This document shows, piece by piece, positions 9,179 through 19,636 of a stretch of DNA of 64,000 bases (position 1 is its first letter; every line of letters begins with the position of its first letter). The DNA is from Burkholderiales bacterium 67-32 (GTDB lineage Bacteria > Pseudomonadota > Gammaproteobacteria > Burkholderiales > Burkholderiaceae_B). The notes below the pieces were generated by a model, which searched no databases, was not told the origin of the DNA, and worked only from the letters and a program-made list of their open reading frames with translations. The translations under genes were made by a program, and so were the position numbers. The stretch lies in NCBI GenBank assembly GCA_001898625.1, contig MKUP01000022.1:1-64000 (forward strand). The letters are read 5' to 3'.

Positions 9179-9220
9179 ATAGTTGTTATCGTCAACAAAG
9201 TAGTGTATAAAAACAACTAT
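9179..9220 (+). promoter_or_regulatory. 42-bp composite promoter/operator, copy 1
   Basis: ATAGTTGttatcgtcaacaaagtagtgtataaaaaCAACTAT; TTGTTA-N17-TATAAA promoter embedded; same architecture at 13684 and 19595. Confidence 0.75.
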
Positions 9221-9249
9221 CGTAGGCCACCAGACATCCAGGGGTTCGC

Positions 9250-10017
9250 ATGAGCAGTGCATATTCCACCATCCGCGTCGAGGTCGAGGACCACGTCGCC
9301 ACGCTGACACTGAACCGGCCCGAGAGCCGCAACGCGCTGAATACGGCCATGTGCGGCGAGCTGATCGCCGCGACCGAGGTGCTTGCCGCCGACGAGTCCG
9401 TGCACGTGGTCGTGATCCGGGGAGAAGGGCCGGTGTTCTGCGCCGGCGCCGACCTGAAGGAGCGCAAGGACATGTCCACCGCCGAGCTCACCGCGCGCCG
9501 CGTCAAGGGTTTCACCGCCTATGCCGCCCTCGAGCGCCTGCCGCAGGCGGTCATTGCCGTGGTGCATGGCGCGGCCTTCGGGTCGGGCTGCGAGATCGCC
9601 GGCGCCAGCGATTTCATCCTGGCCTCCACCGAGGCGAAGTTCCGCTACCCGGAGGTCGGCTGGGGCACCATAGGCGCCACGCAGCGGCTGCCGCGCATGG
9701 TGGGTACGCGCATGGCCAAGGAACTGCTGTTTACCGGGCGCACCGTCGAGGCGCAGGAAGCCCAGGCCATCGGGCTGGTGAACCACGTGTACGAGCCAGC
9801 GGAGCTGGAGGCGCGTGCCATGGAAATGGCCCGCCACATCGCCGCCGCCGCGCCGCTGACGGTCCGGCTGACCAAGCGCTGCGTGGACCAGGGCGTGGAG
9901 ACCACGCGCGAGGGCGCGATGGCCGTGGAGCTGCTGGCCATCGAGGAGAACCTGCGCCACAGCGACTGGAAGCGCGCGATCTCGGGCTTCGGTGCGGGAG
10001 CGCAGAAAAATGCTTGA
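9250..10017 (+). CDS. Enoyl-CoA hydratase/isomerase family protein
   Basis: Crotonase motifs NRPESRNALNTAM, FCAGADLKERKDM, GAAFGSGCEIAGASDF. Confidence 0.9.
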   Translation: MSSAYSTIRVEVEDHVATLTLNRPESRNALNTAMCGELIAATEVLAADESVHVVVIRGEGPVFCAGADLKERKDMSTAELTARRVKGFTAYAALERLPQAVIAVVHGAAFGSGCEIAGASDFILASTEAKFRYPEVGWGTIGATQRLPRMVGTRMAKELLFTGRTVEAQEAQAIGLVNHVYEPAELEARAMEMARHIAAAAPLTVRLTKRCVDQGVETTREGAMAVELLAIEENLRHSDWKRAISGFGAGAQKNA

Positions 10018-11653
10018 CCGGCCCACCACGCTCTATCGCACGCTGGAGCACACCGCCCGCGAGTACGGCGCGCGCGAGGCTTTCGTCTGCCAGGCCGACC
10101 GCCTGACCTGGGAAGAAGTGCTGGCCGACACCCGCCGCATCGCCGCCGCGCTGCACGCCAGCGGCGTGCGCAAGGGCGACCACGTCGGAATCATGCTGGG
10201 CAACGGCGCCACGTGGTTGCAGACCTTCTTCGCCTGCGCGACCCTGGGCGCGGTGACCGTACCGGTCAACACCCGCTTCAAGACCGACGAACTGCAGTTC
10301 TGCCTGAAGCAGGCGGACGTGAAGCTGCTGGTGTTCGCCGACGCGTTCCTGGGCATCGATTTCGTTCAACTGCTGACCGCGGTCGAGCCGGCGCTGGATA
10401 CCGGCCTGCCCGGCCAGGCGCTGCCCGAGCTGCGCCGAGCCGTCATGGTGGGCGACGGCCCCTGCCCGGCGGGCGCCGAGCGCTACGCGGATTTCCTGGC
10501 CCGCGGCCAGGAGGTGGCGCCCGATACCATCGAGGCGGTGGCGGCTGGAATCACCCCCGACGATCTGCTGCTGATGCAGTTCACCTCGGGCACCACGTCC
10601 TTCCCCAAGGGCGTGATGCTGACCCACGCCAACATGCTGACCAACGCCTGGGCCGCCGGCCAGCGCATAGGCGTGCGCCATGACGACCGCTACTTCAGCA
10701 TCCGGCCGTTCTTCCACGTCTCGGGCACGACGTTGTCCGTGCTGGTCAGCCTGGTGGCGGGCTGCTGCCTGCTGACGCTGCCCAAGTTCGACGTGGCCGA
10801 GACGCTGCGCGTGATGGACGAGGAAAAGTGCACGCTGACCTCGGGCAACGACACCATCTTCCTGATGATGATGGGCCATCCCGACTTCGATCCCAAGAAG
10901 CTGCACCTGCGCGGCGGCTGGGCGGCGGCGGGACCCGAGGTCATGCAGCAGATCCGCGACGTGATGGGCGTGGACAACGTCTGCAATGCGTACGGGCAGT
11001 CCGAGGCCTCGCCCAACGTGATCATGTCGTCGCGCGACGATCCCTTCGAACTGCGCGCCCACGGCTGGGGGCTGCCGCATCCCGGCACCGAGGTGCGCAT
11101 CGTCGACCAGGACAGCGGCGAGGTCCTGCCTCCCGGCGGCCAGGGCGAGATCCAGGTGCGAGGCTGGCACGTGATGCGTGGCTACTACAAGATGCCCGAG
11201 GCGACCGCCAAGGCGCTGACGCCGGAGGGCTGGCTGCGCACGGGCGATCTGGGCGAGATGTCGCCGGAAGGCCGGCTGCGCATGGTCGGCCGGCTCAAGG
11301 ACATGTACCGGGTCGGCGGCGAGAACGTCGCGCCGGCCGAGGTCGAGGAGACCCTGCATGGGCATCCCGCGGTGCAGATGGCCCAGGTGATCGGTGTGCC
11401 CGACGCGCGCCTGGGCGAGGTGACGGCGGCCTTCGTGCTGCTCAAGGAAGGCAAGCAGGCCGAGCGCCAGGAACTGATCGACTGGTGCAAGGCGCGCTGC
11501 GCGAACTTCAAGGTGCCGCGCTACCTCGAGATCGTGGATACGTTCGACAATATCGGCATGACGGGCAGTTCCAAGGTCCAGAAGAACAAGCTCAAGGCGC
11601 ATGCCATCGAGCTGTTCGGCCTGGCGAACGTCCATGGCGCGAAGGGAGGCTAG
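10010..11653 (+). CDS. AMP-dependent acyl-CoA synthetase/ligase
   Basis: FTSGTTSFPKGVMLTH, YGQSE, GWLRTGDLGEM, 3' K motif SSKVQKNKLK; 8-bp overlap with upstream gene. Confidence 0.9.
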   Translation: MLDRPTTLYRTLEHTAREYGAREAFVCQADRLTWEEVLADTRRIAAALHASGVRKGDHVGIMLGNGATWLQTFFACATLGAVTVPVNTRFKTDELQFCLKQADVKLLVFADAFLGIDFVQLLTAVEPALDTGLPGQALPELRRAVMVGDGPCPAGAERYADFLARGQEVAPDTIEAVAAGITPDDLLLMQFTSGTTSFPKGVMLTHANMLTNAWAAGQRIGVRHDDRYFSIRPFFHVSGTTLSVLVSLVAGCCLLTLPKFDVAETLRVMDEEKCTLTSGNDTIFLMMMGHPDFDPKKLHLRGGWAAAGPEVMQQIRDVMGVDNVCNAYGQSEASPNVIMSSRDDPFELRAHGWGLPHPGTEVRIVDQDSGEVLPPGGQGEIQVRGWHVMRGYYKMPEATAKALTPEGWLRTGDLGEMSPEGRLRMVGRLKDMYRVGGENVAPAEVEETLHGHPAVQMAQVIGVPDARLGEVTAAFVLLKEGKQAERQELIDWCKARCANFKVPRYLEIVDTFDNIGMTGSSKVQKNKLKAHAIELFGLANVHGAKGG

Positions 11654-11657
11654 AGAA

Positions 11658-18806: not shown

Positions 18807-18843
18807 GATGAACGGGACAGTGTTGGAGGATTCGTAGGGACGC

Positions 18844-19575
18844 TCAGCCGGCGGAGGCGCGGATCCGGTCGTTGACGTCGCGCGCGGCGCGCACCGCGTC
18901 TTCCAGCGACAGCTCATAGGCCTGCTGGAATGCGCGCTTGGAGGCCGTGAGGCCGGCCGGCGCGAACTGGGCCAGGCGCTCGGCCAGCGCCAGCGCGGCG
19001 GGAAGCAGTTCCGCCTCGGGCACGACGCGGTTGATCATGCCCAGCGCGTAGGCGCGTTCGGCATCGATAGGTTCGCCGGTGGCAACCAGTTCGAAAGCGG
19101 CCTTGGGGCCCACCTGCCGGATCAGGTTGGGAATCAGCATGCCGGCCGAGATGCCATGCTTGACCTCGGGATAACCGAAGCGGGCGGCGGGCGCGGCCAG
19201 GACCAGATCGCAGCCCAGCGACAGGCCGGCGCCGGCGCCGATGGCCGGGCCGTTGACCGCGGCGATGACGGGCGTGCCCAGGCGCGCCACGATGGTATTG
19301 ATGTCGACCAGCAGGTCGCTGCGGCGGCTGGCCAGCTCCGGCTGCTCGCGCGCGAGGCGGCGGGCTTCCTCCAGGTCGGCGCCGGCGCAGAAACAGCTGC
19401 CCCGGGCGGCGATGACCACGCATCGCGTGTCGGGATCGGCATCGGCGCCGTTCAGGGCATCGACCAGGCCTTGCAGCATCGCCAGGCCGAGCGCGTTGCG
19501 CTTGGGATGGCGGTTCAGCGTCAGCAGCAGGACATGGCCGTGTCGCTCGGCCAGCAGTTCGTTTTCCTCGACCAC
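18844..19575 (-). CDS. Enoyl-CoA hydratase/isomerase family protein
   Basis: NRHPKRNALGLAM, FCAGADLEEAR, GPAIGAGAGLSLGCDL. Confidence 0.88.
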   Translation of the reverse strand: MVEENELLAERHGHVLLLTLNRHPKRNALGLAMLQGLVDALNGADADPDTRCVVIAARGSCFCAGADLEEARRLAREQPELASRRSDLLVDINTIVARLGTPVIAAVNGPAIGAGAGLSLGCDLVLAAPAARFGYPEVKHGISAGMLIPNLIRQVGPKAAFELVATGEPIDAERAYALGMINRVVPEAELLPAALALAERLAQFAPAGLTASKRAFQQAYELSLEDAVRAARDVNDRIRASAG

Positions 19576-19594
19576 GGTGGCGTTTCCTTGAAAT

Positions 19595-19636
19595 ATAGTT
19601 GATAAAGTAAACTATGTAGTTAATTTCGTCAACTTT
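19595..19636 (-). promoter_or_regulatory. 42-bp composite promoter/operator, copy 3
   Basis: Minus strand AAAGTTGacgaaattaactacatagtttactttatCAACTAT; TTGACG-N17-TACTTT. Confidence 0.7.

What the first reader, a model, noticed from the sequence alone, without database searches (positions are those of the whole stretch)
9179..19636. Three identical-geometry 42-bp promoter-operators define a three-operon acyl-CoA regulon
Seen directly: ATAGTTG-N28-CAACTWT, exactly 42 bp, occurs at 9179-9220 (+), 13684-13725 (+) and 19595-19636 (read on -). Each copy lies just upstream of a different enoyl-CoA hydratase gene. Each can be read as two adjacent ~20-bp dyads (TAGTTG-N8-CAACTA-like) with centres 22 bp apart, about two helical turns. 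A -35/-10 pair with a 17-bp spacer sits inside the array in every case: TTGTTA..TATAAA, TTGAAT..TATAAA and TTGACG..TACTTT. A MarR gene (13089..13565) is the fifth gene of operon 1. MarR dimers are known to bind such dyads and repress. Inference: this MarR autoregulates and coordinates all three operons through paired dimers that block the -35 and the -10 together.
Basis: partly seen in the sequence, partly recalled or inferred. Interest (0 to 1): 0.82.

Follow-up and report, generated by a model that had tools for sequence, protein, structure and literature searches.

The report
MarR repressor's paired promoter switches
Three promoters in this Pigmentiphaga genome carry the same double binding site, very probably for a repressor protein encoded beside them, so that one switch turns on a whole, still unstudied set of genes for breaking down some carboxylic acid; this is a well-supported new example of a known type of control.

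Summary
The three 42-bp arrays lie exactly where stated and match nowhere else in the 6.66-Mb genome at 0-1 mismatch. Two corrections: each array is two 19-bp dyads, TAGTTGA-N5-TCAACTA (half-site GTTGA), and their centres are 21 bp apart, not 22. A fourth tandem array, as strong as array 1, lies unlinked before an orphan TctC receptor gene.

Across Pigmentiphaga the arrays are footprints: 31-34 of 42 columns invariant, against 0-2 of 30 in each flank. MarR homologues of 36-69% identity, in Beta- and Alphaproteobacteria, sit beside the same dyads and mostly the same enzymes. Seven non-Pigmentiphaga loci have tandem dyads at exactly 21 bp; none of ten control loci does. A Pigmentiphaga genome without this MarR lacks the motif.

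Best reading: the MarR (13089-13565) represses its own operon and the others by paired dimers covering -35 and -10. An acyl-CoA intermediate probably relieves repression. Binding, cooperativity and ligand are untested. Related known cases: CouR-type CoA-thioester repressors and MexR's GTTGA operators. The "three enoyl-CoA hydratases" label is partly wrong: ECH2 and ECH3 lack one catalytic Glu.

The parts
9179..9220 (+). Array 1: tandem operator-promoter of operon 1; dyads 9180-9198 and 9201-9219, centres 21 bp apart; -35 TTGTTA 9183-9188, -10 TATAAA 9206-9211
   Evidence: 34/42 columns invariant in 9 Pigmentiphaga loci (window included) against 2/30 and 0/30 in flanks
13684..13725 (+). Array 2: tandem operator-promoter of operon 2; dyads 13685-13703 and 13706-13724; -35 TTGAAT 13688-13693, -10 TATAAA 13711-13716
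   Evidence: 33/42 invariant in 8 loci against 0/30 and 1/30 in flanks
19595..19636 (-). Array 3: tandem operator-promoter of operon 3; dyads 19617-19635 and 19596-19614; -35 TTGACG 19627-19632, -10 TACTTT 19604-19609 (weak)
   Evidence: 31/42 invariant in 8 loci against 0/30 and 2/30 in flanks
9250..10017 (+). ECH1: crotonase-family protein with both catalytic Glu (GSGCE, YPE); first gene of operon 1
10010..11653 (+). AMP-forming acyl-CoA synthetase (start estimated; open frame from 9992)
11658..12596 (+). HMG-CoA-lyase-like protein with the catalytic Cys of GGxGGC replaced by His (GGVGGHPAKVKYGGG)
12589..13053 (+). Hotdog-fold (PaaI-like) thioesterase
   Evidence: TIGR00369 above its cut-off
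13089..13565 (+). MarR-family winged-helix regulator, proposed autoregulated repressor; recognition helix DKSQASRSV
   Evidence: AlphaFold2 pLDDT 91; best PDB match 2fa5
13619..13635 (+). Terminator-like hairpin between marR and array 2 (weak; fewer such sites than in shuffles)
13742..14479 (+). ECH2: crotonase-family protein lacking the Glu144 equivalent (GGGAG); first gene of operon 2
14476..15675 (+). Class III CoA-transferase; among its closest solved relatives are succinate--hydroxymethylglutarate CoA-transferases
15753..16718 (+). TctC/Bug periplasmic receptor
16742..17851 (+). Enolase-superfamily (mandelate racemase/muconate lactonizing) enzyme (start estimated)
18844..19575 (-). ECH3: crotonase-family protein lacking the Glu144 equivalent; first gene of operon 3
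17853..18806 (-). FabK/nitronate-monooxygenase-family flavoprotein; second gene of operon 3

Best explanation
The three arrays are tandem operators for the MarR-family protein encoded at 13089-13565. Each array holds two MarR dyads (GTTGA-N5-TCAAC) 21 bp, two helical turns, apart. The promoter is built into them: the TTG(A) of the first half-site serves in the -35 and the middle of the second dyad as the -10. Without substrate, one dimer sits on each dyad on the same DNA face and blocks RNA polymerase at operon 1 (which includes marR), operon 2 and operon 3. An acyl-CoA made by the pathway, probably the product of the operon-1 acyl-CoA synthetase or one derived from it, binds MarR and releases it, so all the enzymes come on together. 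Shown: the sites, their uniqueness, their conservation, and their linkage to this MarR and gene set across genera. Inferred: binding, repression, autoregulation, cooperativity, the acyl-CoA ligand.
For: Unique sites. Footprints against unconserved flanks; 19 of 20 half-site columns invariant in each array. All three arrays in six further Pigmentiphaga-group loci; a seventh contig ends inside array 2. G135, a Pigmentiphaga without a close MarR homologue, has no match to a profile built only from other genera, while the same profile finds arrays 3 and 1 in the window's genome at E 7e-8 and 5e-5. G139 and G102 came in by DNA pattern alone, and MarR homologues (62%, 61%, 36%) were then found beside the arrays. 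Shinella, Sinorhizobium and Polaromonas plasmids came in by protein, and tandem 21-bp dyads were then found there. Rearranged clusters carry the dyads along: in G139 and G047 one run of genes behind one tandem array; in G003 three units with one dyad each. None of ten control loci around other MarR homologues has the tandem, or any dyad above 11/14. The recognition helix KSQxSRxV is largely kept in linked MarRs, while the window genome's two nearest paralogues read DRPLVSR and DKSHGSR. Precedent: CouR binds ATTGA-N5-TCAAT over -35 and is released by p-coumaroyl-CoA (PMC4737184).
Against: No binding or expression data. The genome has 65 matches to the MarR_2 model, so another MarR could bind. 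Array 2 is scored poorly by the profile from other genera (split, E about 1.2). Several cluster-bearing loci have only single dyads, or none (Bosea, Rhodococcus), so pairing is not essential to the system. A standard promoter scan did not call the promoters.
Confidence: 0.85

Rival explanations
1. The arrays are real operators but another of the genome's MarR proteins is the main regulator, or several MarRs share them.
For: 65 MarR_2 matches in the genome; the half-site GTTGA is used by other MarR proteins (MexR; PMC10609311); similar dyads occur at unlinked TctC genes, one with a different MarR gene about 6.6 kb away.
Against: The arrays track this MarR and its gene set across genera and a class boundary; the two nearest paralogues' loci have no dyads and differ in the recognition helix.
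Confidence: 0.1
2. Each dyad is an independent operator of the same MarR; doubling raises local occupancy, with no cooperative pairing.
For: G003, Cupriavidus and the g97 genomes have single dyads before the same genes.
Against: Among strong dyad pairs within 60 bp, the spacing 21 occurs in eight loci (the window included) and every other spacing in at most one, which suggests that phase matters.
Confidence: 0.35
3. The MarR activates rather than represses, or does both depending on ligand.
For: Some MarR proteins in acyl-CoA catabolism, such as FerR and BadR, are listed as repressor/activator (PMC10458429).
Against: The dyads lie on -35 and -10 themselves, where a bound dimer would block RNA polymerase.
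Confidence: 0.07
4. Chance or repeat-derived similarity with no regulatory role.
For: Weak only: single dyads at 12/14 are expected about 3 times per genome.
Against: No tandem in 24 Mb simulated; footprints against unconserved flanks; recurrence in other genera.
Confidence: 0.01

Closest known systems
CouR of Rhodococcus jostii RHA1 and kin (CouR of R. palustris, HcaR, FerR, FerC, BadR): MarR regulators of CoA-thioester catabolism
   Same: MarR with an acyl-CoA ligase and crotonase gene set; several promoters sharing one box; the CouR box ATTGA-N5-TCAAT has the same 5-bp spacer and TTGA core and overlaps -35 (PMC4737184; PMC10458429)
   Different: One box per promoter in CouR against two at 21 bp here; different enzyme set; ligand unknown here; CouR is not named among the sequence hits at E 0.001
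MexR of Pseudomonas aeruginosa (mexR-mexA operator)
   Same: Half-site GTTGA (reported for mexA; PMC10609311); two neighbouring MarR sites over promoter elements (own knowledge of Evans et al. 2001; text not held); MexR is a fold match
   Different: Drug-efflux regulation; about 24% identity over the fold match; spacing not compared here
2fa5, MarR protein of Xanthomonas campestris
   Same: Closest solved relative by sequence and fold (31% identity in the fold alignment)
   Different: No operator or ligand information in these results

Membership tests
MarR family of transcriptional regulators | Winged-helix MarR domain above the curated cut-off | tested here: met
   PF12802 43.8 bits against 27; PF01047 30.8 against 24.6; fold matches MarR, MexR and other MarR-family structures
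MarR family of transcriptional regulators | Binds a palindromic site of 16-20 bp as a dimer | not testable with these tools
   Conserved 17-19 bp dyads lie beside the gene in many genomes; binding itself untested
CouR-type acyl-CoA-responsive MarR repressors | Operator TTGA-N5-TCAA overlapping -35 at several catabolic promoters | tested here: met
   Dyads GTTGA-N5-TCAAC with the TTG of -35 in the first half-site
CouR-type acyl-CoA-responsive MarR repressors | Released by the CoA thioester of the pathway substrate | not testable with these tools
   No ligand data; inferred from the acyl-CoA synthetase in operon 1
CouR-type acyl-CoA-responsive MarR repressors | Close sequence relationship to CouR/HcaR/FerR | tested here: inconclusive
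   No CouR chain named among 30 PDB hits at E 0.001; no NCBIfam MarR equivalog above its cut-off
HMG-CoA lyase (gene in operon 1) | Catalytic Cys in the GGxGGC motif | tested here: not met
   GGVGGHP here, and His in all 16 cluster orthologues whose motif was covered, although NF004283 is passed
Enoyl-CoA hydratase (ECH2, ECH3) | Both catalytic glutamates (Glu144 and Glu164 of the rat enzyme; numbering from own knowledge) | tested here: not met
   Glu164 equivalent kept (GYPE), Glu144 equivalent is Gly
Enoyl-CoA hydratase (ECH1) | Both catalytic glutamates | tested here: met
   GSGCE and YPE

The most novel reading that the evidence does not exclude
A conserved MarR subfamily uses a fixed two-dimer operator, dyads exactly 21 bp apart with the promoter embedded in them, from Alpha- to Betaproteobacteria. 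It controls an undescribed carboxylic-acid pathway whose HMG-CoA-lyase-like enzyme works with His in place of the catalytic Cys.
Probability: 0.35. Interest if true: 0.5.

Novelty: new member of a known kind. Interest (0 to 1): 0.4.

Why it matters
It gives an experimentally ready regulon: regulator, four candidate operators and a core enzyme set found in Alpha- and Betaproteobacteria and Rhodococcus, on chromosomes and plasmids. The regulator's ligand would point to the substrate of a catabolic pathway for which my literature searches found no description. The loci with one or two dyads before the same genes are natural material for asking what operator doubling and helical phase add to repression.

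Tried and rejected
The N8/22-bp reading of the dyads was replaced by N7/21 bp. Two-mismatch genome hits were rejected as chance: the control gave similar numbers. A dyad-like match inside the tctC gene of P. litoralis (L044/L091 10350) and of G116 (L090 10683) lies in coding sequence and was not counted. The site at G000:C7:248354 looks like overlapping dyads rather than a 21-bp tandem and has another MarR gene about 6.6 kb away, so it was not assigned to this regulon. Most one-mismatch TAGTTG-N28-CAACTA hits in 151 family genomes are chance; the reversed-pattern control was usually higher. Literature searches for the enzyme set and for MarR dimers on one face found nothing; the MexR operator paper is not held.

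Full report
WHAT IS THERE. The three 42-bp arrays are at the stated places. At up to three mismatches the window holds only these three (0 of 100 shuffles gave as many matches), and in the 6.66-Mb genome no other place matches with 0-1 mismatch. Read closely, each array is two dyads of the form TAGTTGA-N5-TCAACTA, scoring 12+11, 13+12 and 13+12 of 14+14, with centres 21 bp apart. In 24 Mb of simulated sequence of local composition no such pair occurred, while single dyads at 12/14 are expected about three times per genome. So the pairing, not the single dyad, carries the significance.

GENES. Operon 1 (+): ECH1, acyl-CoA synthetase, HMG-CoA-lyase-like protein, hotdog thioesterase, MarR. Operon 2 (+): ECH2, class III CoA-transferase, TctC receptor, enolase-superfamily enzyme. 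Operon 3 (-): ECH3, FabK/nitronate-monooxygenase-like flavoprotein. The genes of operon 1 are tightly packed and there is no array directly before marR, so autoregulation through array 1 is the simple inference. A weak terminator-like hairpin lies between marR and array 2.

CONSERVATION IN THE GENUS. A scan with the MarR protein brought seven loci, six named Pigmentiphaga and one Alcaligenaceae bacterium, with MarR at 84-99% identity. Their arrays sit at the same places (one short contig, L042, ends inside array 2). With the window and G116 included, 34/42, 33/42 and 31/42 columns are invariant in arrays 1-3, against 0-2 of 30 in each flank; 19 of 20 half-site columns are invariant in each. 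Some of these genomes are close relatives, so the P. humi, P. litoralis and G116 copies carry most of the weight.

OTHER GENERA. Two routes meet. By DNA pattern alone, G139 (two places) and G102 showed tandem dyads; MarR homologues at 62%, 61% and 36% were then found beside them. By protein, G003 (66%), G047 (64%), and plasmids or chromids of Polaromonas (69%), Cupriavidus, Shinella and Sinorhizobium came in, and dyads were then found. In G139 and G047 the run NMO-ECH2-CoA-transferase-TctC-ECH1-synthetase-HMGL-MarR (order differing slightly) follows one tandem array. In G003 the genes form three units, each with a single dyad in front. In the g97 genomes a single dyad lies before the HMGL gene. 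Dyad position therefore follows unit boundaries through rearrangement. Tandem pairs at exactly 21 bp occur in the window and in seven other loci. The ten loci taken as controls, around other MarR homologues (33-44% identity), have none and no dyad above 11/14. The grouping was mine: a locus counted as a case if it held the enzyme cluster or had been found by the DNA pattern. Bosea and Rhodococcus clusters lack recognisable dyads, so the operator is not universal.

INDEPENDENT PROFILE. A sequence profile built from seven arrays outside Pigmentiphaga found arrays 3 and 1 in the window's genome (E 7e-8 and 5e-5) and array 2 only weakly and in pieces (E about 1.2). G135, a Pigmentiphaga genome without a close homologue of this MarR (best 28%), gave no match at E 10. 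The profile also found a fourth place, G000:C27:128674-128713 (E 1e-3): a tandem of 12+11 at 21 bp, as strong as array 1, just before an orphan TctC gene, with counterparts in G073 and G043. The regulon is therefore probably larger than three operons.

MECHANISM. The TTG(A) of the first half-site falls at the -35 and the middle of the second dyad at the -10, spacing 16-17, in the three arrays of the window and of P. litoralis and, in one orientation, in G102; array 3's -10 in the window is weak. Two dimers two turns apart would lie on one face and cover both promoter elements. The predicted MarR fold is confident (pLDDT 91) and closest to 2fa5. Its recognition helix reads DKSQASR. In CouR the residues expected to read DNA are Asp65, Ser67 and Gln68 (PMC4737184), a pattern that resembles D-x-S-Q here; this is a lead, not an alignment result. 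CouR uses ATTGA-N5-TCAAT boxes over -35 and is released by p-coumaroyl-CoA; several other MarR proteins of such pathways respond to CoA thioesters. By analogy the ligand here is probably an acyl-CoA of this pathway (about 55% in my judgement). Repression rather than activation follows from site position (about 90%). Cooperativity is about even.

PATHWAY. The core HMGL-ECH2-CoA-transferase-ECH1-synthetase-NMO recurs in Alpha- and Betaproteobacteria and Rhodococcus. The HMGL-like protein has His for the catalytic Cys (GGxGGHP) in every orthologue whose motif was covered, and ECH2 lacks one catalytic glutamate throughout. The CoA-transferase is close to succinate--hydroxymethylglutarate CoA-transferases. 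The substrate is unknown; neighbours differ by clade (polyamine-type ABC transporter, aminotransferase and succinate-semialdehyde dehydrogenase genes in several alphaproteobacteria; TctC, enolase-superfamily and thioesterase genes here).

VERDICT. Observation confirmed, interpretation largely supported by comparison, extended by one candidate operator and corrected on geometry and enzyme names. It is a new member of a known kind, with an undescribed pathway attached.

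Noticed in passing
G000:C27:128674-128713 (L136 6675-6714): Fourth tandem dyad array at 21 bp, before an orphan TctC/Bug receptor gene; counterparts in G073 (L139) and G043 (L140).
   Followed up: partly
window 11658-12596: HMG-CoA-lyase-like protein with Cys replaced by His and a four-residue insertion after GGVGGHP; the His is conserved in all cluster orthologues whose motif was covered.
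   Followed up: partly
window 13742-14479 and 18844-19575: Two crotonase-family proteins lacking the first catalytic glutamate, so probably not ordinary enoyl-CoA hydratases.
   Followed up: partly
L115, L117, L120: The same enzyme core sits beside polyamine-type or similar ABC transporter, aminotransferase and succinate-semialdehyde dehydrogenase genes on alphaproteobacterial plasmids, a possible hint to the substrate.
   Followed up: no
L083 (G139:C6) 8555-11379: A second MarR homologue (62%) in G139 with TctC and CoA-transferase genes and its own tandem array: the regulator-operator pair seems to have been duplicated.
   Followed up: partly
G000:C7:248354 (L137 7355-7420): Overlapping GTTGA-type dyads before another TctC gene, conserved in G073 (L144); a different MarR gene lies about 6.6 kb away.
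   Followed up: partly
window 21770-24598: Heavy-metal P-type ATPase gene (-) divergent from a MerR-family regulator gene (+), by reading of the translations only.
   Followed up: no
window 4117-9136: Branched-chain-amino-acid-type ABC transporter genes just upstream of array 1, without an array of their own.
   Followed up: no
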